A stretch of 64,000 nucleotides of DNA, from contig JAKSLG010000007.1 in NCBI GenBank assembly GCA_024401295.1, positions 1 through 64,000 of the forward strand, written 5' to 3'. Shown in pieces: positions 6,695 through 29,135 of this stretch (positions within the stretch are counted from its first letter, which is position 1; each line of letters starts with the position of its first letter). Made by a program: the position numbers and the translations under genes. The notes under the pieces are model-generated. The model was not told the DNA's origin. It saw only the letters and a program-made list of their open reading frames with translations, and ran no database searches. This DNA is from Bacteroidales bacterium (GTDB lineage: Bacteria > Bacteroidota > Bacteroidia > Bacteroidales > Marinilabiliaceae).

Positions 6695-6736
6695 ATAAAT
6701 CCTCAACCGGACAAACGCGTTCTGTTGAGGATTTAT
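6695..6736 (+). terminator. Hairpin after the beta-propeller gene
   Basis: A 13-bp perfect stem pairs ATAAATCCTCAAC (6695-6707) with GTTGAGGATTTAT (6724-6736). No T tract follows, so it may be a weak terminator or an mRNA 3'-end stabiliser. Confidence 0.5.
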
Positions 6737-6821
6737 TGTCTGAAGCACTATAATTTTCACTTTTTCGCCTTAACATGAAGATTTTACGCATTCAAACTTA
6801 ACACCATTGACAAATAAAGGT

Positions 6822-6829
6822 TATCTTTG
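6822..6829 (+). promoter_or_regulatory. -7 promoter element (TATCTTTG)
   Basis: Exact TAnnTTTG match 28 bp upstream of the ATG at 6858. Confidence 0.65.
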
Positions 6830-6857
6830 CACAAAAATTTGACAAGAATAAGAAAAA

Positions 6858-7823
6858 ATGAAAGAACTTGCGAACCTCATGGGTTATAGAGAAAGCATCA
6901 AAGTTGTCGATGCTACACTGCGAGACGGCGGTTTGGTAAACGACTTCTATTTTACTGACGACTTTGTAAAGGAACTATATAAGACAAACGTAGAGGCCGG
7001 CGTTGACTACATGGAACTTGGCTATCGCGCTTCAAAGAAGGTTTTCGACGTCAACAAATTCGGCAAGTGGAAGTTCAGCTCAGACGACGACATCCGTGAA
7101 GTCATTGGCGAGAACAATACAGACCTTAAGCTCGCTATCATGGCCGACATAGGTCGCCACGAACTTCAGGATTTCGACCAGAAGGCAAACTCACCTGTTG
7201 ACCTCATTCGCGTTGCTACTTATATCCATCAGATGCCTGAGGCTATCGAGATGATCAACGACGCAGCAAAGAAGGGCTACGAGACGAGCTGCAACATCAT
7301 GGCTGTCTCTGGTGCACAGAAGGAAGATGTTGAGGTCGCACTCAACATGCTTGCAGACACTCCTGTTGATTGCATCTACATCGTTGATAGTTTCGGTTCA
7401 CTCTTCCCAGAGCAGATTGCTCGCATCTCTGACCTCTACATGAACTTTGCAGCTAAGCACAACAAGAAGGTCGGCATCCATGCTCACAACAACCAGCAAC
7501 TTGCATTCGCAAACACAATCGAGGCATGCAGCGATGGTGTAGATTGGCTCGATGCAACATACTTGGCAATGGGTCGTGGCGCCGGCAACTGTGCAATGGA
7601 GCTCCTCCTTGGATTCCTCAAGAACCCTAAGTATGATATCTACCCTGTTTATAAGTTCATCGAGAACCAGATGATGAAGCTCAAGGATGACGGCATCGTT
7701 TGGGGCTACGACATGCAGTACCTCATGACAGGTCAGCTCAACCAGCACCCACGCACAGCTATCCAGTTCACAAAGGATAAGCGTCGTGACTATGCTGAGT
7801 TCTACAACGAAATTTCGCAGTAA
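6858..7823 (+). CDS. HMGL-like aldolase catalytic domain protein
   Basis: 321 aa forming one TIM-barrel of the HMG-CoA lyase / DRE metallolyase superfamily. The first strand carries DATLRDGG (residues 18-25), where this superfamily places a metal-ligand Asp and catalytic Arg. H208 and H210 in GIHAHNN are the usual second metal ligands. Relatives include 4-hydroxy-2-oxovalerate aldolase and homocitrate/isopropylmalate synthases. The protein lacks the C-terminal regulatory domain of the synthases, so a lyase or aldolase role is more likely, but the substrate is unknown. It is monocistronic and codon use is that of a well-expressed gene. Confidence 0.8.
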   Translation: MKELANLMGYRESIKVVDATLRDGGLVNDFYFTDDFVKELYKTNVEAGVDYMELGYRASKKVFDVNKFGKWKFSSDDDIREVIGENNTDLKLAIMADIGRHELQDFDQKANSPVDLIRVATYIHQMPEAIEMINDAAKKGYETSCNIMAVSGAQKEDVEVALNMLADTPVDCIYIVDSFGSLFPEQIARISDLYMNFAAKHNKKVGIHAHNNQQLAFANTIEACSDGVDWLDATYLAMGRGAGNCAMELLLGFLKNPKYDIYPVYKFIENQMMKLKDDGIVWGYDMQYLMTGQLNQHPRTAIQFTKDKRRDYAEFYNEISQ

Positions 7824-7850
7824 TATCTGAAACACATCGATATTCATCGA

Positions 7851-7880
7851 GGGGTGCTCAATTATGGGCACCCCTTTTTC
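7851..7880 (+). terminator. Rho-independent terminator
   Basis: 7-bp G+C-rich stem GGGGTGC (7851-7857) / GCACCCC (7868-7874) followed by five Ts, 28 bp after the aldolase stop. Confidence 0.85.
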
Positions 7881-7904
7881 GCCTAAAGAGAAAACACGTT
7901 CCCA

Positions 7905-8852
7905 ATGAGACACTTTCTGATTATAGTTGCACTGTTGTGTCACGTGCTTGCCTATGCACAGGCAAAAGATGAAAAAGTGCAGACCGAAATTGTCATGAGT
8001 GATGGCAGCACAAAGACTCTGAGTCTGTCGTCGCGACTCAACAAAGCCATCAGCGTACTGAGCAGAGACCGTCAGAATTATCTGAAACAAGGACTCGCAC
8101 AGAACGCAGAACTGCTGACATTCTTTGAAGAGAACAGCAGATTTGTGTCAACATGGGACTACATCTCAAAGCAACTTCCAAACAGAGGCTTTAACCCACA
8201 GTTCCTCGGGCTTTTCGTCCAAGCAAACGAATATGCAAAATATGGAGGCAACAGAATTGAAAACTACATCTATAAGGAGAATGGCAACGGGAACATCGAC
8301 ATTCTGACAAAAGGCCCCAACAAGCATTTGGCAACGCTGCGGAAAGGCAACACGATAGAGATTGACGCGAACGACGTCAACAGTTGGTTTGCACAGCTCA
8401 AGCCTTTTCCGAAATGCACATACATAATCAATGGAGCACAGTATCAGACAGATGCCAATGGTCGAATAGAAAAAGCCATATTCTCGCTCGATTCGACATC
8501 GGTTGGAAAACATCTGCGCGACCAGGATGTGCAAGCGAACATGCATACGCTCAAAGGCAGCAACAGCAAATTGTACGATGCAGGACACATCGTTGCAGAC
8601 CGCTTCGGAGGAAGTTCAAACATGGTCAACCTCGTTCCCATGACGCGCAAAGTCAATCGTTCTGACTATAAAAGAATCGAAAACCTTTGGGCAAAAAACA
8701 TCAAACAGGGAAAGACCGTCAGTGCCGAAGTAATCATCGAATATGACACAAGTTCACAAATTCCATCGCGCTTCAAAGTTAGATACAGCTATGGCAACAA
8801 AGTGATGGAAAAAATCATTGAGAACGATATAGAAGAAGAGACTTCCAAATAA
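7905..8852 (+). CDS. Exported DNA/RNA non-specific endonuclease (Endonuclea_NS_2-like)
   Basis: 315 aa with a signal peptide (HFLIIVALLCHVLAYAQA). The C-terminal ~130 residues match the beta-beta-alpha-metal nuclease family: DAGHIVADRFGG places the general-base His at H228, and SNMVNLVPM supplies the metal-ligand Asn (N242), followed by the family's NRSDYKRIENLW helix. The central region (about residues 30-190) has no family I recognise. Such nuclease domains often form the toxic end of contact-dependent toxins, but here there is a plain Sec signal and no adjacent immunity or delivery gene. Nucleic-acid scavenging or defence outside the cytoplasm is the simplest inference. Confidence 0.8.
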   Translation: MRHFLIIVALLCHVLAYAQAKDEKVQTEIVMSDGSTKTLSLSSRLNKAISVLSRDRQNYLKQGLAQNAELLTFFEENSRFVSTWDYISKQLPNRGFNPQFLGLFVQANEYAKYGGNRIENYIYKENGNGNIDILTKGPNKHLATLRKGNTIEIDANDVNSWFAQLKPFPKCTYIINGAQYQTDANGRIEKAIFSLDSTSVGKHLRDQDVQANMHTLKGSNSKLYDAGHIVADRFGGSSNMVNLVPMTRKVNRSDYKRIENLWAKNIKQGKTVSAEVIIEYDTSSQIPSRFKVRYSYGNKVMEKIIENDIEEETSK

Positions 8853-8858
8853 TGGGAA

Positions 8859-8900
8859 AGCCCATCAGAGAAATCAATCTCCGATGGGCTCTTTCTTTTA
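8859..8900 (+). terminator. Rho-independent terminator between convergent genes
   Basis: Stem AGCCCATC (8859-8866) / GATGGGCT (8883-8890) followed by CTTTCTTTTA. It serves the plus-strand nuclease gene. The T tract on the minus side is poor, so it is probably not bidirectional. Confidence 0.75.
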
Positions 8901-8912
8901 TAAGCCAATCGA

Positions 8913-10946
8913 TTAGTTAATCAGATATGTCTTTGTCAGACCTTTATACGTACACTTCACCGTTGCACGGCCATCGACAATCTTGCCGACCTCAATCTTC
9001 ACCGAAGGATCATCGGCTGTAACCTTAATAACAGAATTGTCGGTGAGACGGCCATAAACCTGATAATGATCGGTTTGTGTGTATCCATTCTGGTTGGTAG
9101 AGAGAATGGCATCACGTGGGATGATGAGCTGCGTTCCATCGACACTGATCTTAATTTGTGGCACAACAGGCGGCTGAGGAATGTTCTGACCAGCCTTTGA
9201 GAAGCTCATGCCCTGCATATCGAACAATCCCTGAGGACGCTGAGGACCACGAGGGCCGCCCCAACGAGGACGCTCCGGCTCTTTCACATCAGGTCCATCG
9301 ACTACAAAATATATGGCATGTTTGCCAGCAAGACCTTCAACAGCAGGCACCTTGCAGCTGGCCACAAAATGTTCGCCACGCTTGCCCGACAACTTGATGG
9401 TTCCAATCTGCTTGCCATTCCATGTGCTGTTAGCGTAAGGTCCATCAAGCATGACCTTCACTGTGAACTCACCATCATATCCATACACACCATACAGATT
9501 GATTTGTGCATTATCGCCGGCCTTGATACCCTCGAATGCCTTGCAACCCTTAGTATCCTGCGACAAGCCGCCAAAACCAAAGTACTTATAACCAATGATG
9601 GCTCCATTCCTCAAACCAGCCAGATCCATGGTGTTGTTCCAGATATCGCGCTGATCCTGCAAAGCATTATTGTCAGTTATGTAGCAAGCCAGACCTGCAG
9701 AATAGAACTCGTATGGGTTCAGACCAAAAATCTGGAAGCCCTCAGAAGTAACCTCAGCACCCGTGTAGTGATCGCCATTTGAAGCCTTTGCGCTCCACTC
9801 ATTATTCTCGGAATAAGGATCATAACCGACAATACGAACCTGACCGCCCTTGGCAACAGGCTTCTTATCCCACTCAATCTTCACAGGGGCAACCATGGCC
9901 TGACGGGCATTTCCGAAACCACGTGGCGGACGGTGATAGAACACATACCACTGACCATTAATCTCTTGCAGAGAGCCATGAGTATTGTGGGCAAAGTTTG
10001 TGGTAGTGAGCGCACTACCCTCTTCGTTGAGAACGACGCCACGCGAATCGACCAAAACGCCACCCGAACGCCATGGGCCAAGAGGAGTATCGCCGTAGGC
10101 ATAGCGCAAAGCCGAATTGGTTGAGCCCAAACCATAATCCGGACCACTATAGCCCGAGAACACCATTACATATTTATTCCCGACCTGACGTATGGATGAA
10201 GCCTCGAAGAAATTGAATTCACCAGGATTCTGGCCTTTGTAGAGAGCTGGATATTCGGTTCCCTTAGGATCGCGAACCTCGCCGTAGCGAGCCGAAGCCG
10301 GAATGAAATAATCACGAATCTGTGTGCCAGGACGAACGCTGTACATTGTCTCCTGATCGAGCTCGGCAGCTGTAGAATGCTGGAAACCATAGAACACATA
10401 GGCACGGAACCCCTTCTTGAAATCAGGATCTTTCTTGTTGGTAACCGGCTCAATAAATACCGATGGATCAAAATCAATCATTGAACCATCCACGCACTTG
10501 CGTCCATCCTCGGTTAGATTGATTGGAGTGAACGGACCATTAGGACGTTCACCCTTGCAAACCATAGGAACTCGCTGCCATCCGCGTGAATGAGGATAGA
10601 GGTAATAAACCTTCTTGCCATTCTCCATAACCTCAACCAAATCGGGTGCAAACATTGTGTCCCACTGTCCGTCAACATAATGAGTAAAGATGGCTCCTTC
10701 ATCGCGCCACTGGCTCAAGTCCTCAACGGGAGCCGACCACATTCGAATATCAGGTCCGCAGTAATCCGTATTCTTCACATCATGTGAACCGATGATGTAG
10801 GCGCGCATCTTACCAGGATTGTCAGGATCTTCAAAGACACGAGGCTCGCCATCCGGAACATGCTCCCATAGCGGCAAATACGGGTTCTGAGCTTTAGCTG
10901 TAAATGTTGCAGCACAAGCCAGAGCCAAGAGAAAACATTTCTTCAT
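8913..10946 (-). CDS. Secreted glycoside hydrolase family 43-like protein
   Basis: 677 aa with a signal peptide (LALACAATFTAKA). Residues 25-350 form a GH43 five-bladed propeller: PRVFEDPDNPG near the start, MFAPDLVEV (residues 98-106), IDFDPSVF (157-164), and NFFEASSIR with the likely acid E248, then AHNTHGS in the last blade. GH43 enzymes act on arabinose- or xylose-containing glycans. Residues ~390-560 look like a beta-sandwich carbohydrate-binding module, then comes a Pro/Arg-rich linker (~560-580), and the last ~80 residues resemble an Ig-like domain. There is no SusC/D pair beside it. The xylB/xylE genes lie 45 kb away. Confidence 0.85.
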   Translation of the reverse strand: MKKCFLLALACAATFTAKAQNPYLPLWEHVPDGEPRVFEDPDNPGKMRAYIIGSHDVKNTDYCGPDIRMWSAPVEDLSQWRDEGAIFTHYVDGQWDTMFAPDLVEVMENGKKVYYLYPHSRGWQRVPMVCKGERPNGPFTPINLTEDGRKCVDGSMIDFDPSVFIEPVTNKKDPDFKKGFRAYVFYGFQHSTAAELDQETMYSVRPGTQIRDYFIPASARYGEVRDPKGTEYPALYKGQNPGEFNFFEASSIRQVGNKYVMVFSGYSGPDYGLGSTNSALRYAYGDTPLGPWRSGGVLVDSRGVVLNEEGSALTTTNFAHNTHGSLQEINGQWYVFYHRPPRGFGNARQAMVAPVKIEWDKKPVAKGGQVRIVGYDPYSENNEWSAKASNGDHYTGAEVTSEGFQIFGLNPYEFYSAGLACYITDNNALQDQRDIWNNTMDLAGLRNGAIIGYKYFGFGGLSQDTKGCKAFEGIKAGDNAQINLYGVYGYDGEFTVKVMLDGPYANSTWNGKQIGTIKLSGKRGEHFVASCKVPAVEGLAGKHAIYFVVDGPDVKEPERPRWGGPRGPQRPQGLFDMQGMSFSKAGQNIPQPPVVPQIKISVDGTQLIIPRDAILSTNQNGYTQTDHYQVYGRLTDNSVIKVTADDPSVKIEVGKIVDGRATVKCTYKGLTKTYLIN

Positions 10947-12628: not shown

Positions 12629-12668
12629 ATCGGTCAAAACAGCAATTCAGAATGCCATTTTGACCGAT
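12629..12668 (-). terminator. Terminator hairpin after the redox operon
   Basis: Perfect 11-bp stem ATCGGTCAAAA (12629-12639) / TTTTGACCGAT (12658-12668), just past the end of the ECF S-component gene. On the minus strand it is followed by TTCTTTATT. Confidence 0.6.
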
Positions 12669-12690: not shown

Positions 12691-13191
12691 TTATTTCAGA
12701 TATCTCAACAGAGCATAACCGAAGAAAATCTGAATCAACATTCCCGGATATCCGATGCGGATGTCCTGCAAAGCTGCATAGAGGCTGCCTGTCATAGGCC
12801 ATTCAAAGAAGAGGCCAGCGAGCTGATAGCCGACAACCGAAAGCGCGACGGCCCACAAGGCCACGCGACCTACTCGGCGTGCAATTGTTGCTGCTATAAT
12901 TGCGAGCAATGTACTTTTTATGAGCAGGATTGGAAGCGCATGAGTTGGTGGCATTGCGAACAAGATATGGTTTACCAGAGGCGAGCAGATTGCTGTCATG
13001 AGGCCGGCAATCATGCCATACTTGTATGCGGCAATGAGAGTGAAGAAATAGATTGGCAGGAAGATGAGACCTCCTTTAGGCATAAGGTGGCATAGCTGCG
13101 GAACGACAATGTTGCCGACAACGAAGAGTGCTGCCATCAGATATGTCTTGGCTTCCGTGATACGGAGCTGATAAACTGCTGTATTAAGCAT
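12691..13191 (-). CDS. ECF-transporter S-component-like membrane protein
   Basis: 166 aa with about five to six hydrophobic helices. The layout (helix, KGGLIFLPIYFFTLIAAYKYG loop, short helices, conserved amphipathic C-terminus) matches the small substrate-binding S-components of energy-coupling-factor vitamin transporters. No EcfT or EcfA gene is in the window, so it would rely on a shared module elsewhere. It is the last gene of the envelope redox operon, 18 bp after DUF1893. That context suggests import of a cofactor or product of the pathway. Substrate unknown. Confidence 0.65.
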   Translation of the reverse strand: MLNTAVYQLRITEAKTYLMAALFVVGNIVVPQLCHLMPKGGLIFLPIYFFTLIAAYKYGMIAGLMTAICSPLVNHILFAMPPTHALPILLIKSTLLAIIAATIARRVGRVALWAVALSVVGYQLAGLFFEWPMTGSLYAALQDIRIGYPGMLIQIFFGYALLRYLK

Positions 13192-13209
13192 GACTGTTTT
13201 ATTATTGAT

Positions 13210-13632
13210 TTAACTTTTCATTTTACTCAAAAAACCTCTGATGAGCGAGAAAGCCTCGTCCGGGTCAGACGTCTGCGATGTCAGTTTTTCAACCGGACAG
13301 ATATCCGTTCCCGTGCGGTTGATGATATTCGGTTGCATGACGGCATACGAAGTTTTTATGCCAGCCTGTTCGAGAACACTATGCGCCGGCTCACTCATCA
13401 CATACGCAAAGACTTCGGTGACACCCCCTTTGACAAGAAGAAGCGCTGCTCCGCGACCGATCACACGATCGGCAATCCTGCCTCCACGCAAGAAATCGGG
13501 CTCTGAATCGACAAGCGAAAAGAGGTCTATCACACCCTTGCGTGCAAAAGTACGCACATGGCCATCGGCAGAGCAAACGGCACCCCGGACTTCCTCGCCA
13601 TCGAGCATTTTTTTGAGCGTCTCCATCTGCAT
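13210..13632 (-). CDS. DUF1893 family protein
   Basis: 140 aa, cytoplasmic by sequence. It matches DUF1893, a deaminase-like-fold family (Thermotoga TM1506 type): RGGRIADRVIGRGAALLLV corresponds to the helix-strand core, followed by NRTGTDICPVEKL with the conserved Cys-Pro. No enzyme activity is established for the family. It lies 5 bp downstream of the Tat-exported aldo/keto reductase and upstream of the ECF S-component, so it is very likely translated as part of the same operon. Confidence 0.8.
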   Translation of the reverse strand: MQMETLKKMLDGEEVRGAVCSADGHVRTFARKGVIDLFSLVDSEPDFLRGGRIADRVIGRGAALLLVKGGVTEVFAYVMSEPAHSVLEQAGIKTSYAVMQPNIINRTGTDICPVEKLTSQTSDPDEAFSLIRGFLSKMKS

Positions 13633-13637
13633 CGCGT

Positions 13638-15062
13638 TTACTCCTCCTGGCTATTACGCTTGAGTTGCTCGACAAATCGGTCCATGCGACGCATCTCGCC
13701 CGGAATATTGATATTCTGAGGGCAATGCGGACGACATTCACCACATCCGATGCAGTGATCGACCTGACGCAAACGAGGCACACTACGGTCGTAGCCCACA
13801 AGGAACGCCTTACGCTGTTTCGCATAGACCTCATCGCGACGGCTCTGAGGGAGATTACCCTCCTTGATCATCTTGTTGTAATGGACAAAGACTGCAGGTA
13901 TATCGATGCCATAAGGGCAAGGCATGCAGTAATTACACTCGTTGCAAGGAATCGTCTTGAGGTTGTAAATATCCTTTGCAATGTCCATCAGGAACTCATC
14001 TTCCTCGGCTGTAATCGGCTCGAGAGGAGAATATGTCTTGACGTTTTCAACAAGATGTTCCATATATGTCATGCCAGAAAGCACACTGACGACGCCCTCT
14101 GGAGTGCCAGCGAAACGGAATGCCCAAGATGCAATACTATCCTCAGGACGACGAGATTTCATCTTTGCGACGATAGGATCCGGCACGTTGGCAAGACGTC
14201 CACCGAGCAATGGCTCCATGATTACACTCGGAATGCCACGCTTCTGAAGTTCTTCATAGAGATAAACGGCATCGGTATTCGAAGGGTTGATTTCATCAGC
14301 AAAGTTCCAGTCGAGGTAGTTGAGCTCGATCTGAACAAAATCCCACTTGTAGCGACCCTCGTCATGCCATTTGAGCAACATATCGAAGATGGCGATATCG
14401 CCATGATATGAGAAACCGAGATTTCGGATTTTTCCCTCTTTTTTCTGCTCGACGAGCCAGTCGAGAATGCCGTTATCCATATAACGGGCATTGAATGTCT
14501 CGAGTGGATTGAGGTTCTTGCCGTTCAAATCGCGTGCTGTACCGCCAATAGCATGAAGCAACAGGTAATCGACATAGTCGGTCTGCAGATACTTGAGCGA
14601 GTTGTAGAACATCTCCTGGCTCTCCTTTCGGCTCCAATTGCTTGCAGCGAAATTACTGAGTTTTGTTGCAATGAAGAACTTGCTTCTGTCGTGACGTGCA
14701 AGCGCGATGCCTGTGCTCGTTTCCGAACGACCCTGGCAATAAGCTGGGCTTGTATCGAAATAGTTGACGCCATGCTCCAGCGCATAATCAATCTGACGAT
14801 TGACAAGATCCTGATCAATTGGCGCATTTGGATTCTCGCGTCCTGCACCACCGCCCACAACAGGCAGGCGCATCATGCCATAGCCAAGAAGCGAAATGAC
14901 ATCGCCAGAAATAGGATTGCGGCGCATTGTCATCTTTCCGTCAGAGGCATTCTGGCTGGAAGAGGCCGACTGCGTCTCGTTTTTGCCGACACACGCACTC
15001 AGCACTGGTGCTGACGCAATTGCTGCACCGCCAAATATCTTGAGAAAATCTCTTCTATTCAT
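13638..15062 (-). CDS. Tat-exported aldo/keto reductase with C-terminal ferredoxin domain
   Basis: 474 aa. The N-terminus has a twin-arginine motif NRRDFLK, a hydrophobic stretch, and LSAC (C24), so it looks like a Tat-exported lipoprotein. Residues ~50-370 form the aldo/keto reductase barrel, and the usual tetrad is visible in FDTSPAY (Asp, Tyr), ATKLS (Lys) and LLLHA (His). The C-terminal ~100 residues carry two 4Fe-4S motifs, CNECNYCMPC and CIGCGECRPHC. Export of a fold that normally uses NADPH, together with Fe-S clusters, implies electrons from a membrane donor, probably the product of the neighbouring 15103-16572 gene. The gap upstream is 40 bp. Confidence 0.85.
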   Translation of the reverse strand: MNRRDFLKIFGGAAIASAPVLSACVGKNETQSASSSQNASDGKMTMRRNPISGDVISLLGYGMMRLPVVGGGAGRENPNAPIDQDLVNRQIDYALEHGVNYFDTSPAYCQGRSETSTGIALARHDRSKFFIATKLSNFAASNWSRKESQEMFYNSLKYLQTDYVDYLLLHAIGGTARDLNGKNLNPLETFNARYMDNGILDWLVEQKKEGKIRNLGFSYHGDIAIFDMLLKWHDEGRYKWDFVQIELNYLDWNFADEINPSNTDAVYLYEELQKRGIPSVIMEPLLGGRLANVPDPIVAKMKSRRPEDSIASWAFRFAGTPEGVVSVLSGMTYMEHLVENVKTYSPLEPITAEEDEFLMDIAKDIYNLKTIPCNECNYCMPCPYGIDIPAVFVHYNKMIKEGNLPQSRRDEVYAKQRKAFLVGYDRSVPRLRQVDHCIGCGECRPHCPQNINIPGEMRRMDRFVEQLKRNSQEE

Positions 15063-15102
15063 GATTCAAAATTCAATTCCAAATTAAAAACTACACCGCT
15101 AA

Positions 15103-16572
15103 TTATATCAGCTTGTGTGACTCATGTCCCTCAACATATATCGCTGAGAATGGACGTGCAGGGCAAAGATTTTCACATGCGCCACAACCGATACACTTCG
15201 ACTCGTTGATTGCAGGAATCGTCGGTTTTGATTTGTCGCCATCGATGTGAACCATCTGAATGGCTCCTGCCGGACAATGGCGGGCACAGTTGCCACAAGA
15301 CACGCCTTCGACAGCTGGCAAGCAGTTTTTCATCACAAACACGGCATGACCGATCTGTATTGACGACTTTTCGGCAAGAGTGATTGGCTTTATTGCGCCT
15401 GCCGGGCAAACACTTGAGCAAGCATTGCATTCAGGACGGCAATAGCCACGTTCATAGCTCATCGTTGGCTGCATCAGAGTCACTAGGTCGGTGCTTGGAC
15501 GCAAGACATCATTCGGGCACTCTGAGACGCAAAGCTGACAACCCGTGCATCGCATACGCATGTTTTCAGCAGTAAGCGAGCCTGGAGGCGTGATAGGCGT
15601 TTTGCGCTCAGGAGCAATCTTGTCTTCAATAACGGCAAGACCACCGTCAACTTTTTTCTTGTCTTGAGCAAACGATGCCGTTGCAGCAGCCGATGCCGCA
15701 GCAAGAACGAACATTCGACGGCTCTCATCTACAGACTTGCCGCCATTGTTCTTGTTTGGCTTATGTGCGTATGATATTGCACCGAATGAGCATTCATTCA
15801 GGCAATTACCACATACGACGCATCGTGAATAGTCAACCTCATGGCTGGCAACATTCAGACACGCTGCCTTGCAGTTACGCTCACACTTACGACAATTCTT
15901 GCATTTGCTATCGTCAATAACGATCTTTAACCACGAAAAACGTGCAGCAAAGCTGAGGACTGTACCAACAGGGCATATCGTGTTGCAATAGGTACGACCA
16001 TTGCGCCACGCCAATACAGCAACGACAACAAATGAAACTGCTGCAATCACGAACGTAGGCAATGAGCGGATCCAAACTTCGCGGCTATAGAATGTATAGC
16101 TGTCCATTCTCTCTGCTGCCATGGCGAGCAAATTGTTACAACCTATGTAAATCGGTTGCAAAAGATTCTGAACAATTCGACCGAAACTGCTATAAGGTGC
16201 GAGCAATGCTACAACAGAACCGGCACCAAGCAACAATGCAACGACGAGAACGCCAAGCATTGCATAGCGAAGCCAACTCTTTGCTGGTGAATAAGAAAAA
16301 CGATTTTTCTTACGTCCGATGCCATGGCTGATAACATCCTGAAGAATGCCAAGCGGACAAATCACCGAACAATAGATTCGGCCAAAAACGAGCGTAAGCG
16401 CAACAAGAACCGCGATGACGGCAAAGTTAAGCGCCAAGACAGCTGGCAAGAACTGAATCTTTGCCAACCATCCTAAATACGCATGAAGCGTACCTGTAAA
16501 GTCGAGGAAAAGCATCGTTATCAGGACAAAAACGATACTTGCCAATACGACTCTGATTTTTTTGAGGTTCAT
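15103..16572 (-). CDS. NapH/NapG-like polyferredoxin membrane protein
   Basis: 489 aa. Residues 1-205 form a NapH/NosR-like quinol-dehydrogenase unit with about four helices (10-28, 43-63, 104-126, 172-190) and two C-x3-CP motifs (CSVICP 68-72, CNTICP 196-200). Two 4Fe-4S motifs follow (CKNCRKC at 224-230, CVVCGNC at 251-257). At residues 284-302 there is a twin-arginine-like start SRRMF and an Ala-rich hydrophobic stretch ending SFAQ, like a second, internal Tat signal. The remaining 185 residues are NapG-like, with four further cluster motifs (from 342, 378, 426 and 460). The fusion would pass electrons from quinol to the periplasm. It lies in the operon between the TonB receptor and the aldo/keto reductase. 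Confidence 0.85.
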   Translation of the reverse strand: MNLKKIRVVLASIVFVLITMLFLDFTGTLHAYLGWLAKIQFLPAVLALNFAVIAVLVALTLVFGRIYCSVICPLGILQDVISHGIGRKKNRFSYSPAKSWLRYAMLGVLVVALLLGAGSVVALLAPYSSFGRIVQNLLQPIYIGCNNLLAMAAERMDSYTFYSREVWIRSLPTFVIAAVSFVVVAVLAWRNGRTYCNTICPVGTVLSFAARFSWLKIVIDDSKCKNCRKCERNCKAACLNVASHEVDYSRCVVCGNCLNECSFGAISYAHKPNKNNGGKSVDESRRMFVLAAASAAATASFAQDKKKVDGGLAVIEDKIAPERKTPITPPGSLTAENMRMRCTGCQLCVSECPNDVLRPSTDLVTLMQPTMSYERGYCRPECNACSSVCPAGAIKPITLAEKSSIQIGHAVFVMKNCLPAVEGVSCGNCARHCPAGAIQMVHIDGDKSKPTIPAINESKCIGCGACENLCPARPFSAIYVEGHESHKLI

Positions 16573-16596
16573 TAGTTTTATTAAGTTTTTGCTAGT

Positions 16597-18471
16597 TTAA
16601 AATTTCAGATTCACACCTGCCATGAATGTTGCATGAGGCATAGGATAACCGGCGTTGATCTCATAATCCTGAGCAAGAAGATTCTCGCCCTTAGCCCATA
16701 TCTGCAAATGCTTCATAACCTGACAGCCGACATTGATGTTGAGCAGAGTAAAGTTCTCTTTCGGATCATTTTCTGTGCCGACAGCCTTGAACAATCCGCT
16801 CACCTGTTGCAAACCTGCTGAAGCATTCCAGATGTTGCAATGGAATGTAGCACCGAGATAGCCCTTATACTCAGGAGCACCAACGACATGATTATCCATG
16901 TGGAGCCATGAATGGTTCGTGTTCAACGTCAGACATTCAGACACCTTGAACGAAGCTTCGAGTTCTGCACCGCGATTCTTTATCTCGCCAGTGTTAACAT
17001 TCTGGCGATTAACTGTCTGAATCATATTGTCACCATCGATGAGGAACAAATTGATTCCATACGTGAAACGTCCATTGGCAATGCGCTGCTTCCATGCAAG
17101 TTCGTAGTTCCAAAGGCGTTCAGCCTCAAGATCTTCGTTCGATGGCGGATAGAGATACATCTCGCGCATCGTTGGATTGCGGAAACCCTTGCTCGCCATC
17201 AGGCGCACCTCTGCATTATTCGTCGGACGAGCAACAATGCCAATCTGCGGAACCCATTCGCTGCCACTTACCGAATGATTGTCGAGGCGAATGCCTGCAT
17301 CAATAGTAAGCCAATCGGCCAAGGTCTGACGGAGGTCAACATAACCGGCTATTTCGTTCATATTGGCTTTGCCGCTCTGCTTGTTCTGCGTCTCAAGAAT
17401 CTCACCAGTCTCACGACTTGTATAGTATGCATTGCCGTAAATGTGCTGATAATCAACACCTACAGTAATACGGCTACCTACCCATGCATCAATCGACTGA
17501 TAGAACGAGACACCCGTCAATGCATCTTTCGAACGGAACAGTCGCATCTGAGGCGTTGCACCTTCGGCATAACCGTCATTAATCTTGTGACGTCCGAAGT
17601 TGTCATATACGCTCAATCGACCGCTTGTGCGTTCGCCATGGTTCTCGACAGCCAATGTTGCCACACCTCGAGTGATCCACTGATCGGCCTCATACATTGG
17701 AGCCGAGACAGATCCCGGATAAGACGAGTTGAAATGTGTCAAATCGACATCTGCAAATATATTCCATTTTTCGTTAAAGTCATAACCCAACTTCACATAT
17801 CCACCATACTGCTCGAATCCCATGCGTGGACGATGGTTGTCGGAACGGCCATACTGGCCTGCTACGGACGACGAAAAGCCGCCCTTTCTAATCATATTGC
17901 TGGCCTCAACCTGAACTGTTCCATAAGAACCGGCGCCAACATGGACATGTGTATTGACGCCATCCTGCTTCATTCCACGAGTCACAATATTGATGACGCC
18001 GCCCATCGCATTTGAGCCATAGAGAACCGATGCCGGACCACGCAAGACCTCGACACGCTCAGCCATCATTGTCTGATAGGCGTCTGCAATGCTATGGCCA
18101 TATATGCCATTGTACTGAGGATGACCATCTATGAGCACAAGAAGCTGACCGCCGCCAGCCGCTATGCCTCGTACATTAATTCCTCCAGCCGCACCATTGC
18201 TGACGCCAAAGCCCATCAGACCTCTCTGCGTAACAAACAAGCCCGGTACCTGTTCAACAAGCGTTGGCAAGATATTAACTCGCTGAGTTTCGGCAAGTTG
18301 AACTCTATCAACAACGCTAATCGTAACCGGAAGATTTCGAGCCGTCACGGCTGTTCGAGTACCAGTAACGACAATATCGTCAAGCGATTTGCCCACAATA
18401 CTATCCTGCTGAGCAAACACGTTGCCACACAAAAGGCCGGCAAAACAGAATACCAAGAATTTAATTTTCAT
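16597..18471 (-). CDS. TonB-dependent outer-membrane receptor
   Basis: 624 aa with a signal peptide ending NVFAQ. LDDIVVTGTR (from about residue 29) is the usual start of the plug region. The plug contains VEVLRGPASVLYGSNAMGG and VINIVTRG, hallmark motifs, and a 22-strand-type barrel follows, ending in an aromatic (LKF). The length and the absence of an N-terminal carboxypeptidase-like extension or SusD partner place it with siderophore/cobalamin-type receptors, not SusC. It is 24 bp upstream of the Fe-S membrane protein. It probably brings in the substrate or metal cofactor used by the envelope redox enzymes, but the ligand is unknown. Confidence 0.9.
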   Translation of the reverse strand: MKIKFLVFCFAGLLCGNVFAQQDSIVGKSLDDIVVTGTRTAVTARNLPVTISVVDRVQLAETQRVNILPTLVEQVPGLFVTQRGLMGFGVSNGAAGGINVRGIAAGGGQLLVLIDGHPQYNGIYGHSIADAYQTMMAERVEVLRGPASVLYGSNAMGGVINIVTRGMKQDGVNTHVHVGAGSYGTVQVEASNMIRKGGFSSSVAGQYGRSDNHRPRMGFEQYGGYVKLGYDFNEKWNIFADVDLTHFNSSYPGSVSAPMYEADQWITRGVATLAVENHGERTSGRLSVYDNFGRHKINDGYAEGATPQMRLFRSKDALTGVSFYQSIDAWVGSRITVGVDYQHIYGNAYYTSRETGEILETQNKQSGKANMNEIAGYVDLRQTLADWLTIDAGIRLDNHSVSGSEWVPQIGIVARPTNNAEVRLMASKGFRNPTMREMYLYPPSNEDLEAERLWNYELAWKQRIANGRFTYGINLFLIDGDNMIQTVNRQNVNTGEIKNRGAELEASFKVSECLTLNTNHSWLHMDNHVVGAPEYKGYLGATFHCNIWNASAGLQQVSGLFKAVGTENDPKENFTLLNINVGCQVMKHLQIWAKGENLLAQDYEINAGYPMPHATFMAGVNLKF

Positions 18472-18524
18472 CTATATATTGTCTATTATTTTGAGGGTCA
18501 AACATTTGTTATTATTTAAACCTA

Positions 18525-19169
18525 TCATTTCTTCGGATAGCCGACAGGGTTATTCATGACTGGCAACTGGCTGTTTGAGAGACCAAGAAGCGTTCTAAGA
18601 CCATCAACATCCATCGATGCACGTGGAACTGTTGCAAGGCCGACAGACTGGCAATAAAGATTGATATTTTCAGAAACATTGCCGGCATCTACACTACCCA
18701 TAACTATAGCATGTTCATCCTGACTTCCATAGATATCGAAATCAATAACCATCAAAAGGCTTACGGGCGCCTCTTTCACAAAATCCTGCGAGAAACTCTT
18801 GCCGCCAGCAATAAGCGCACGCTGGTCACCTGCAACAACGAAACGCAACTTGTTTTCAACTGCCATGTATTCATAAACATTATCGGCTGTAAAAACAAAA
18901 AGACGAATCTCCTTGCGATTCATTGCAGATGGCGCCGTACGATGATTAGAATCACGGCTGACACCATTAGCTGCCCAGCAGAGGTTACTAAGTTCCTGAT
19001 TATTCAATGCTTTAGGATCATATTCACGTACAGAATGACGTGTTGCGAGAGCCTCAACAGTGCTCTGCGATTTCTGATTCATATCCGGAGACGGGAGCGC
19101 AATATCCTGTGCCGTACAGCTTACAAAACTTGCTGCGGCAATAAATGCCATAATTACGTTTTTCATCAT
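18525..19169 (-). CDS. Exported nitroreductase-family (SagB/ThcOx-like) flavoprotein
   Basis: 214 aa. The N-terminus is a signal sequence (FIAAASFVSCTAQ); the Cys at 18 could be a lipobox, with F at -3 being less usual, or cleavage may follow TAQ. The rest is a nitroreductase fold: TRHSVREYDPKAL, LCWAANGVSRD, HRTAPSAMNRKE, and GNVSENINLYCQSVGLATVP near the C-terminus, as in the FMN-binding SagB/ThcOx type. An exported member cannot draw on cytoplasmic NAD(P)H. It is the first gene of the six-gene redox operon, 53 bp before the TonB receptor. No exact -7 element was seen upstream. Confidence 0.85.
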   Translation of the reverse strand: MMKNVIMAFIAAASFVSCTAQDIALPSPDMNQKSQSTVEALATRHSVREYDPKALNNQELSNLCWAANGVSRDSNHRTAPSAMNRKEIRLFVFTADNVYEYMAVENKLRFVVAGDQRALIAGGKSFSQDFVKEAPVSLLMVIDFDIYGSQDEHAIVMGSVDAGNVSENINLYCQSVGLATVPRASMDVDGLRTLLGLSNSQLPVMNNPVGYPKK

Positions 19170-28610: not shown

Positions 28611-29135
28611 CTATTTTGCCCAAATCACGTAATCTGATTTGCGAGGTTTCTCCGGGCGCTCCGAACCGGCAGCTGCATAGCCGATTACGCAGTGGCCAAT
28701 TCCCTCATAATCACCATCAATACCGAGATCGCGAAGGATCTTTTTTCCCTCCTCGCTCTCAAACTCCTCTTTGGCTCTATGTATCCAGCACGAACCAAGT
28801 CCGAGACTATGTGCTGCAAGCATAAGATTCTCCATTACGAGCGTGCCGTCATAGACGTGTGTGCTGACATCTTTGCGAGCAAGAACGACGAGCACGACTG
28901 GCGCATTGTAAAACGGATCGATATCGGCAGACATCACATCGGCGTTCATCTTTGAGAGTTTGTCGCGCAAAGCCTTGTTCGTCACGGCAATGATGATTGG
29001 AGACTGCATACCCATGCCCGTAGGAGCATACGTTCCTGCCTTACAAATCTCTGCGACAAGCTCTTCCGGAACCATCTTGCCATCGAATTTCTTCACGCTT
29101 CGACGCGTGACCATATTTTCAATAACTTTATTCAT
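28611..29135 (-). CDS. Cytoplasmic nitroreductase family protein
   Basis: 174 aa without signal peptide, a full-length nitroreductase of the small type. TRRSVKKFDGK is the N-terminal FMN phosphate-binding motif; YAPTGMGMQSP and LMLAAHSLGLGSCWIHRA are the other flavin contacts. The enzyme should reduce nitro or quinone compounds with NAD(P)H, but the physiological substrate is unknown. It lies 13 bp behind the small polymerase partner gene and probably shares its transcript. Confidence 0.9.
   Translation of the reverse strand: MNKVIENMVTRRSVKKFDGKMVPEELVAEICKAGTYAPTGMGMQSPIIIAVTNKALRDKLSKMNADVMSADIDPFYNAPVVLVVLARKDVSTHVYDGTLVMENLMLAAHSLGLGSCWIHRAKEEFESEEGKKILRDLGIDGDYEGIGHCVIGYAAAGSERPEKPRKSDYVIWAK

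What the first reader, a model, noticed from the sequence alone, without database searches (positions are those of the whole stretch)
12691..19169. Six-gene envelope redox operon with two exported flavin/NAD(P)H-family enzymes and a quinol-dehydrogenase-like Fe-S protein
Seen: co-directional genes with gaps of 5-53 bp encode an exported nitroreductase-fold protein, a TonB receptor without SusD, a NapH/NapG-like polyferredoxin, a Tat-signal aldo/keto reductase with two 4Fe-4S motifs, DUF1893 and an ECF S-component. Known: nitroreductases and aldo/keto reductases normally use cytoplasmic NAD(P)H, while NapH/G pass quinol electrons to periplasmic acceptors. Inference: a periplasmic reductive pathway acts on a TonB-imported compound, fed by menaquinol, and its product or cofactor enters through the S-component. 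I know of no characterised system of this composition.
Basis: partly seen in the sequence, partly recalled or inferred. Interest (0 to 1): 0.75.

Follow-up and report, generated by a model that had tools for sequence, protein, structure and literature searches.

The report
Conserved envelope reduction-and-uptake gene module
Many gut Bacteroidales keep together genes for a membrane electron relay, an exported iron-sulfur reductase, a vitamin-carrier-like membrane protein and a small enzyme of unknown function, which looks like an unstudied way of reducing and taking up some scarce compound.

Summary
The six genes are at the stated coordinates, co-directional, 5-53 bp apart, and end at a strong terminator-like hairpin. 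Four form the core of a Bacteroidales module, the TonB receptor is an optional partner, and the exported nitroreductase does not belong. In 247 genomes of the order, the Tat-exported aldo/keto reductase (AKR, two 4Fe-4S sites) and the NapH-NapG polyferredoxin occur in the same 38 genomes; DUF1893 and the S-component-like protein are strongly associated. DUF1893 is fused to the AKR in four loci, to a TonB receptor in three, and to the S component in three related Clostridia-type loci, where an iron-sulfur AKR without signal peptide follows. tatC lies near in 24 of 134 loci. A relative of the polyferredoxin was shown to need Sec and Tat. 'ECF import' is half right: the S-component fold is there, but EcfT was found in only 1 of 11 genomes, the Clostridia-type one. 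I propose reduction outside, then import, of a scarce compound. Substrate, electron source, direction and chemistry are not shown. No paper on the module turned up in the listed searches.

The parts
18525..19169 (-). Nitroreductase-family protein (214 aa) with a signal-peptide-like N-terminus; first gene of the unit but not part of the conserved module
   Evidence: ORF; PF00881 E 1.4e-19; closest solved chain 3hoi (BF3017) E 2.4e-51; not linked elsewhere
16597..18471 (-). TonB-dependent receptor (624 aa), BtuB/siderophore-receptor type, no SusD; recurrent optional partner
   Evidence: a homologue in 17 of 80 named loci
15103..16572 (-). NapH-NapG fusion polyferredoxin (489 aa): four distinct hydrophobic segments, 8 Cys in two groups, twin Arg, 16 Cys in the C-terminal part
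   Evidence: dual-targeted family in PMC5449189 (passages)
15715..15720 (-). Twin-arginine (residues 285-286) before the NapG part of the polyferredoxin
   Evidence: R286 invariant and R285 at least 90% in 24 sequences
13638..15062 (-). Tat-signal, lipoprotein-like aldo/keto reductase with two 4Fe-4S sites (474 aa)
14991..14993 (-). Lipobox-like Cys24 after the Tat motif RRDFLK
   Evidence: C24, R3, R4 invariant in 29 sequences
13917..13946 (-). First 4Fe-4S Cys group of the AKR (C373, C376, C379, C382)
13722..13754 (-). Second 4Fe-4S Cys group of the AKR (C437, C440, C443, C447)
13210..13632 (-). DUF1893/TM1506 family protein (140 aa), no hydrophobic segment found
   Evidence: E 3.5e-39; conservation; closest solved 1vk9 and 9e9a
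12691..13191 (-). S-component-like membrane protein (166 aa)
12629..12668 (-). Terminator-like hairpin closing the unit

Best explanation
A quinol-fed periplasmic reductase coupled to uptake of its product. Most likely order of events: (1) the TonB receptor, where present, brings a scarce, probably bulky or rare compound into the periplasm (inferred). (2) Menaquinol electrons pass through the NapH part and the four C-terminal 4Fe-4S sites of the NapG part of the fusion polyferredoxin (topology inferred from motifs and from a tested family member; quinol oxidation inferred). (3) They go to the two 4Fe-4S sites of the Tat-exported, lipid-anchored AKR, which reduces the compound at its intact Asp-Tyr-Lys-His site, perhaps through a nicotinamide cofactor carried out with the folded protein (inferred). 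(4) The reduced product crosses the inner membrane through the solitary S-component-like protein (inferred). (5) DUF1893 in the cytoplasm acts on it and so pulls uptake (inferred). A few Clostridia-type and Bacteroidales loci keep the S component, DUF1893 and a 4Fe-4S AKR without signal peptide, so the same reduction may be done inside instead. The nitroreductase is a passenger or a lineage-specific spare flavoprotein.
For: Same 38-genome set for AKR and polyferredoxin orthologues in 247 genomes, with cut-offs set after seeing a clear score gap in both (AKR 677.3 and above against 452.1 and below; polyferredoxin 683.8 and above against 596.2 and below, with G198 counted from two contig pieces). 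DUF1893 with AKR in 22 of 25 genomes (3.8 expected, Fisher 2.8e-18); with the S component in 19 of 25 (2.6 expected, 8.3e-18); collapsed by family 9.8e-12 and 2.2e-10 (which took 119 families; at least one more exists, f159). Fusions: AKR-DUF1893 in 4 and DUF1893-TonB receptor in 3 of 80 DUF1893 ORFs; S component-DUF1893 in L146, L147, L150, each followed by a 4Fe-4S AKR (Pfam of L147 only). Export signals and Tat. Fold of S component and of AKR, tetrad 29 of 29. The three sampled genomes with an AKR-DUF1893 fusion lack the S component, while 17 of the other 19 with both AKR and DUF1893 have it (hand count), as expected if the S component serves cytoplasmic DUF1893.
Against: No substrate is known. 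EcfT in only 1 of 11 genomes. 16 of the 38 AKR genomes lack DUF1893 and 20 of 38 lack the S component, so the reductase can work without import. A receptor homologue is near in only 17 of 80 loci, and with at least 38% identity in 13. DUF1893 also lies in unrelated neighbourhoods in most Clostridia-type loci seen. One of the three fusion genomes, G418, has a second, unfused DUF1893 and yet no S component. DUF1893-TonB receptor fusions carry a signal-peptide-like segment in the middle, which would leave DUF1893 inside, whereas the Tat-AKR-DUF1893 fusions would carry it out: the two do not agree if both are read literally. NAD(P)H dependence of the AKR is not excluded.
Confidence: 0.4

Rival explanations
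1. A periplasmic terminal reductase: the polyferredoxin and AKR use an external compound as an electron sink or detoxify it, and nothing need be imported; DUF1893 and the S component are a second, often neighbouring function.
For: AKR and polyferredoxin share all 38 genomes, while DUF1893 (22 of 38) and S component (18 of 38) are optional. Flavodoxins with signal-like N-termini sit within 77 bp in 6 of 134 loci, which fits a general periplasmic electron supply. NapGH is a known quinol dehydrogenase for nitrate respiration (PMC5449189 passages).
Against: Fusion of DUF1893 to the AKR in four loci and the S component-DUF1893-AKR order in three related Clostridia-type loci tie the parts together.
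Confidence: 0.27
2. Periplasmic redox repair: electrons from quinol keep exported proteins or flavoproteins reduced, with AKR, flavodoxin, nitroreductase or superoxide dismutase as variable outlets.
For: Flavodoxin neighbours, an Fe superoxide dismutase between DUF1893 and the S component in L104, DUF362 neighbours; a different nitroreductase with a lipoprotein-like N-terminus diverges from the module in L050 and L051, two genomes of one genus.
Against: Does not explain the TonB receptor, the S component or DUF1893.
Confidence: 0.13
3. DUF1893 and the S-component-like protein serve the AKR itself, supplying or inserting its cofactor before Tat export, rather than handling an imported compound.
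For: TM1506 is said to auto-ADP-ribosylate an Asp (one review sentence, PMC8946771), a hint at NAD chemistry; nearest AKR folds include NAD(P) complexes; DUF1893 fuses to the AKR; a cofactor-loaded Tat oxidoreductase has a precedent (only the title of Halbig 1999 seen, in the reference list of PMC7317946).
Against: In Clostridia-type genomes S component and DUF1893 also pair without an adjacent AKR (L145, L151, L161), and the S component pairs with a methyltransferase or a phosphoribosyltransferase elsewhere.
Confidence: 0.12
4. Chance neighbours in one genome.
For: Fits the nitroreductase and the flanking LysE and YeiB genes, of which no homologue was found in the 80 named loci.
Against: for the core genes.
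Confidence: 0.02

Closest known systems
NapGH quinol dehydrogenase and the dual Sec/Tat-targeted polyferredoxin of deltaproteobacterium MLMS-1 (PMC5449189; passages read)
   Same: NapH half with transmembrane segments and 4Fe-4S sites, twin arginine, NapG half with four 4Fe-4S sites, in one chain
   Different: Two, not three, Cys groups before the twin arginine; neighbour is an AKR instead of nitrate reductase; gene set with DUF1893 and S component
ECF transporter S components (RibU, FolT, ThiT, BioY)
   Different: EcfT in 1 of 11 genomes; no solved relative by sequence up to E 10; no known ligand
Iron-sulfur aldo/keto reductases (COG1453-like, name recalled)
   Same: AKR barrel, catalytic tetrad, C-terminal two 4Fe-4S sites; 34% identity over 407 columns to the L147 protein
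   Different: Tat motif and lipobox; polyferredoxin in every genome that has it in the sample
TM1506 / DUF1893 (1vk9, 9e9a)
   Same: Profile match E 3.4e-23 to 1vk9 with the invariant Cys and GKAA motif aligned
   Different: Function unproven there and here; here fused to AKR, TonB receptor or S component in some relatives
FMN-dependent nitroreductase BF3017 (3hoi)
   Same: E 2.4e-51
   Different: The window copy lies in the operon; the copies located in other genomes do not

Membership tests
NapH-NapG dual-targeted polyferredoxin | NapH half then NapG half in one chain with 4Fe-4S Cys groups | tested here: met
   NCBIfam NapH 177-274 and NapG 280-472, both below their cut-offs; 8 plus 16 Cys in order
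NapH-NapG dual-targeted polyferredoxin | Twin arginine before the last export segment | tested here: met
   R285-R286, R286 invariant in 24; the stretch after it did not pass my hydropathy cut-off, and low hydrophobicity there is what PMC5449189 reports
NapH-NapG dual-targeted polyferredoxin | Quinol oxidation and Tat dependence | not testable with these tools
   Tat dependence shown for a relative in PMC5449189
ECF transporter | S-component fold | tested here: met
ECF transporter | EcfT (and ATPase) partner in the genome | tested here: not met
   PF02361 in 1 of 11 genomes, the Clostridia-type G444; not in the own genome, which is only 75% complete. ATPases not searched
ECF transporter | Curated family score | tested here: not met
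   no hit for the window protein; L130 PF12822 26.2 bits, cut-off 30.7
Aldo/keto reductase superfamily | AKR barrel and Asp-Tyr-Lys-His tetrad | tested here: met
Aldo/keto reductase superfamily | Uses NAD(P)H | tested here: inconclusive
   residues at the recalled phosphate site are G330, M331, H336, but a Gly-Met pair also stands there in L-galactose dehydrogenases aligned
TM1506/DUF1893 | Pfam family score | tested here: met
   133.9 bits, cut-off 27
TM1506/DUF1893 | ADP-ribosylation of an Asp | not testable with these tools
   known here only from a review sentence
Tat substrate lipoprotein (AKR) | Twin-arginine motif followed by a lipobox Cys | tested here: met
   76 and 72 of 77 orthologous ORFs by regular expression; the ORF without the motif, L040, is called with an over-long start

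The most novel reading that the evidence does not exclude
A vitamin-type S component that works without any ECF motor: uptake is made one-way by chemistry on both faces of the membrane, reduction outside by a quinol-fed exported AKR (or DUF362 protein) and capture inside by DUF1893 (or a phosphoribosyltransferase or methyltransferase), with the reductase able to change side of the membrane during evolution.
Probability: 0.2. Interest if true: 0.85.

Novelty: new variant of a known kind. Interest (0 to 1): 0.6.

Why it matters
It would link menaquinol electron flow to acquisition of a scarce compound in common gut bacteria, give a testable role to DUF1893 and to an orphan S-component family, and explain why tatC often lies next to these genes. 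The polyferredoxin, AKR, DUF1893 and S-component genes lie together in named strains such as Bacteroides finegoldii DSM 17565 (L122) and Dysgonomonas macrotermitis DSM 27370 (L090); B. xylanisolvens XB1A (L123) has the first three together. So the idea is directly testable.

Tried and rejected
Nitroreductase as a module member: rejected. 55 of 247 genomes have it at E <= 1e-30, 10 of them with the Tat-AKR against 8.5 expected; in the nine other genomes with both, it lies on a different contig from the module. The nitroreductases that one search listed near the module match other nitroreductases of this genome, not the window one.

Riboswitch clue to the substrate: none informative. No Rfam hit at gathering score in the window; in 43 further loci (13, 20, 10) only two tRNAs, one T-box, RNase P RNAs and one fluoride riboswitch.

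Substrate from partners of the S component elsewhere: Tat DUF362 plus a second type of polyferredoxin in five loci (L216-L220), with a phosphoribosyltransferase in three of them (L216, L217, L219; Pfam of L217 only); SAM methyltransferase in L223, L226, L234, L235, L236, L239, L249 (Pfam of L223 and L234, the rest by eye); DUF3842 (Pfam of L252; L244, L251, L257 by eye). They do not point to one known vitamin. B12 is suggested only by weak receptor similarity (TIGR01779 134.6 bits, cut-off 599.7). Folate is suggested only by sub-threshold TIGR04518 hits of Clostridia-type relatives.

Solved relatives of the S-component alignment by sequence: none up to E 10. PHROGs for DUF1893: none.

Literature: DUF1893 with Bacteroides 0 papers, DUF1893 0, TM1506 1 (passages read), deaminase-like fold/Thermotoga maritima/ADP-ribosyl the same 1, AKR/4Fe-4S/Bacteroides/twin-arginine/NapH 0 with four of five terms, AKR/Tat signal/iron-sulfur/Bacteroidetes 10 listed, none by listing on this module, one (PMC5449189) on the polyferredoxin family, periplasmic flavodoxin with Bacteroides 0, DUF362/NapH/ECF 513 papers of which the 8 listed are not relevant. 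Searches served for background only. The library lacks most subscription papers, and by its own note bioRxiv.
Full report
What is there. The window lies in contig C38 of a 2.3-Mb assembly that is 75% complete; its relatives by sequence are named Prevotellaceae and other Bacteroidales. The last ORF is followed by a strong terminator-like hairpin at 12668-12629 (the scan as a whole found 8 terminator-like sites against 7.6 expected, so the case rests on this hairpin's fold score). No homologue of the outer genes, LysE-type and YeiB-type, was found in the 80 named loci. I did not test a promoter; the sigma-70 scan found 13 sites against 11.5 expected and does not cover Bacteroidota promoters.

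The conserved core. DUF1893 is found in 25 of 247 genomes of the order and 1 of 198 in a phylum-wide draw, that one being the window's own genome. Stretches around the other 25 order hits (24 genomes) and 80 named loci were examined. In the 80 named loci tblastn finds an AKR in 61, the polyferredoxin in 49, the S-component-like protein in 50, a receptor in 17, and no window-type nitroreductase. Some of these AKRs are distant paralogues: one over 45% identical is in 50 of the 80; ten of the 80 have none of the counted partners. In the 25 order stretches: AKR orthologue 15, polyferredoxin 14, S component 12. In the 247-genome sample the AKR (38) and polyferredoxin (38) orthologues are in the same genomes; DUF1893 with AKR 22 (3.8 expected), DUF1893 with S component 19 (2.6 expected). 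The S component co-occurs even where it is not on the DUF1893 contig (G215, G216, G303; places). Three DUF1893 genomes lack the AKR (G255, G293, G408), six lack the S component, and seven S-component genomes lack DUF1893. 16 AKR genomes lack DUF1893.

Fusions and cross-phylum context. Of 80 DUF1893 ORFs in 134 loci, 4 are AKR-DUF1893 (L045, L046, L053, L136) and 3 DUF1893-TonB receptor fusions. All four AKR fusions keep a Tat motif and a lipobox-like Cys. In the phylum of the Clostridia-named G444, DUF1893 is in 50 of 299 genomes. Of the 30 loci taken, whose printout was partly cut, I saw the S component next to DUF1893 in L145, L151, L161, fused in L146, L147, L150, and one gene away in L170; most others seen had unrelated neighbours. 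Comparing places, which overlap only in part (299 and 229 genomes), gives eight genomes with both within about 1 kb (G631, G575, G490, G444, G582, G658, G476, G639). In L146, L147 and L150, which are close relatives (S-component identity 71-83%), a 4Fe-4S AKR without signal peptide follows directly; the one in L147 is 34% identical to the window AKR over 407 columns. In Bacteroidales L068, L069, L070, L072 and L131 an AKR of this kind lies after DUF1893 and S component, and a 31% identical one in L056.

Export. Orthologous AKR ORFs carry RRxFxK in 76 of 77 and a lipobox-like Cys in 72 of 77. The polyferredoxin has the layout of the NapH-NapG fusion that PMC5449189 reports to need Sec and Tat (passages read). 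TatC is found in 24 of 134 loci, on the strand of the nearest core gene in all 24, before the polyferredoxin or after the last gene, 0-2085 bp away (Pfam check of two). The own genome has one TatC, on another contig.

Variant modules. In G227, G362, G303, G427 and G341 the S component sits with a Tat-signal DUF362 protein and a second type of polyferredoxin, in three of the five (L216, L217, L219) with a phosphoribosyltransferase, and in L219 and L220 with a related receptor. In L221 it sits with that polyferredoxin, an AKR (35%) and an FMN-reductase-like protein, both with twin-arginine starts. In L223 and L226 it sits with a SAM methyltransferase and a receptor. Flavodoxins with signal-like starts lie within 77 bp of the core in 6 of 134 loci (two checked by Pfam). 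The common plan, in my reading, is: receptor, polyferredoxin, exchangeable exported redox protein, S component, exchangeable cytoplasmic enzyme.

Reading. The electron route to an exported AKR is the best supported part (I would give it about 0.75). Import of the product through the S component, and DUF1893 as its cytoplasmic user, are inferences (about 0.45 and 0.35). The absence of the S component in the three sampled genomes where DUF1893 rides on the Tat-AKR (against presence in 17 of 19 without that fusion; hand count) fits, but is a small sample, and one of the three (G418) has a second, unfused DUF1893. The DUF1893-receptor fusions, with a signal-like stretch in the middle, remain unexplained. 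Nothing here names the substrate.

Novelty. The parts are of known families; the combination, its pairing, the fusions and the solitary S component were not found described in the searches listed under Tried and rejected.

Noticed in passing
L036, L037, L058 (fused ORFs 6718-9168 -, 6779-9058 -, 8556-10844 +): DUF1893 fused in frame to the front of a TonB receptor with a signal-peptide-like segment in the middle; either a pre-protein cut by signal peptidase or an internal start.
   Followed up: partly
L216-L220: Parallel module: S component, Tat DUF362 protein, second type of NapH-NapG polyferredoxin, with a phosphoribosyltransferase in three and a related TonB receptor in two of the five.
   Followed up: partly
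L104 4295-4972: Fe superoxide dismutase (Pfam) with a signal-like start between DUF1893 and the S component; clusters it in three loci, probably L119 and L128 by gene spacing.
   Followed up: partly
L223 7451-11856: Receptor, methyltransferase and S component beside genes that look by eye like encapsulin and its ferritin-like cargo.
   Followed up: no
L235, L248, L244, L251, L252, L257: Clostridia-type S-component genes near a HypA-like gene, an aldehyde ferredoxin oxidoreductase-like gene (both by eye) and DUF3842 (Pfam in L252 only); L241, L242, L245, L247 and L254 hold an RNase P RNA gene.
   Followed up: no
window 28677-29108 (-): A further nitroreductase-family gene in the window, away from the operon.
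   Followed up: no
L135 7401-8929: The polyferredoxin homology is split between two overlapping pieces, as if the frame were interrupted in this Phocaeicola sartorii record.
   Followed up: no
L102: A record named Clostridiales carries Bacteroidales-like DUF1893 and S-component genes; possibly a mislabelled bin.
   Followed up: no
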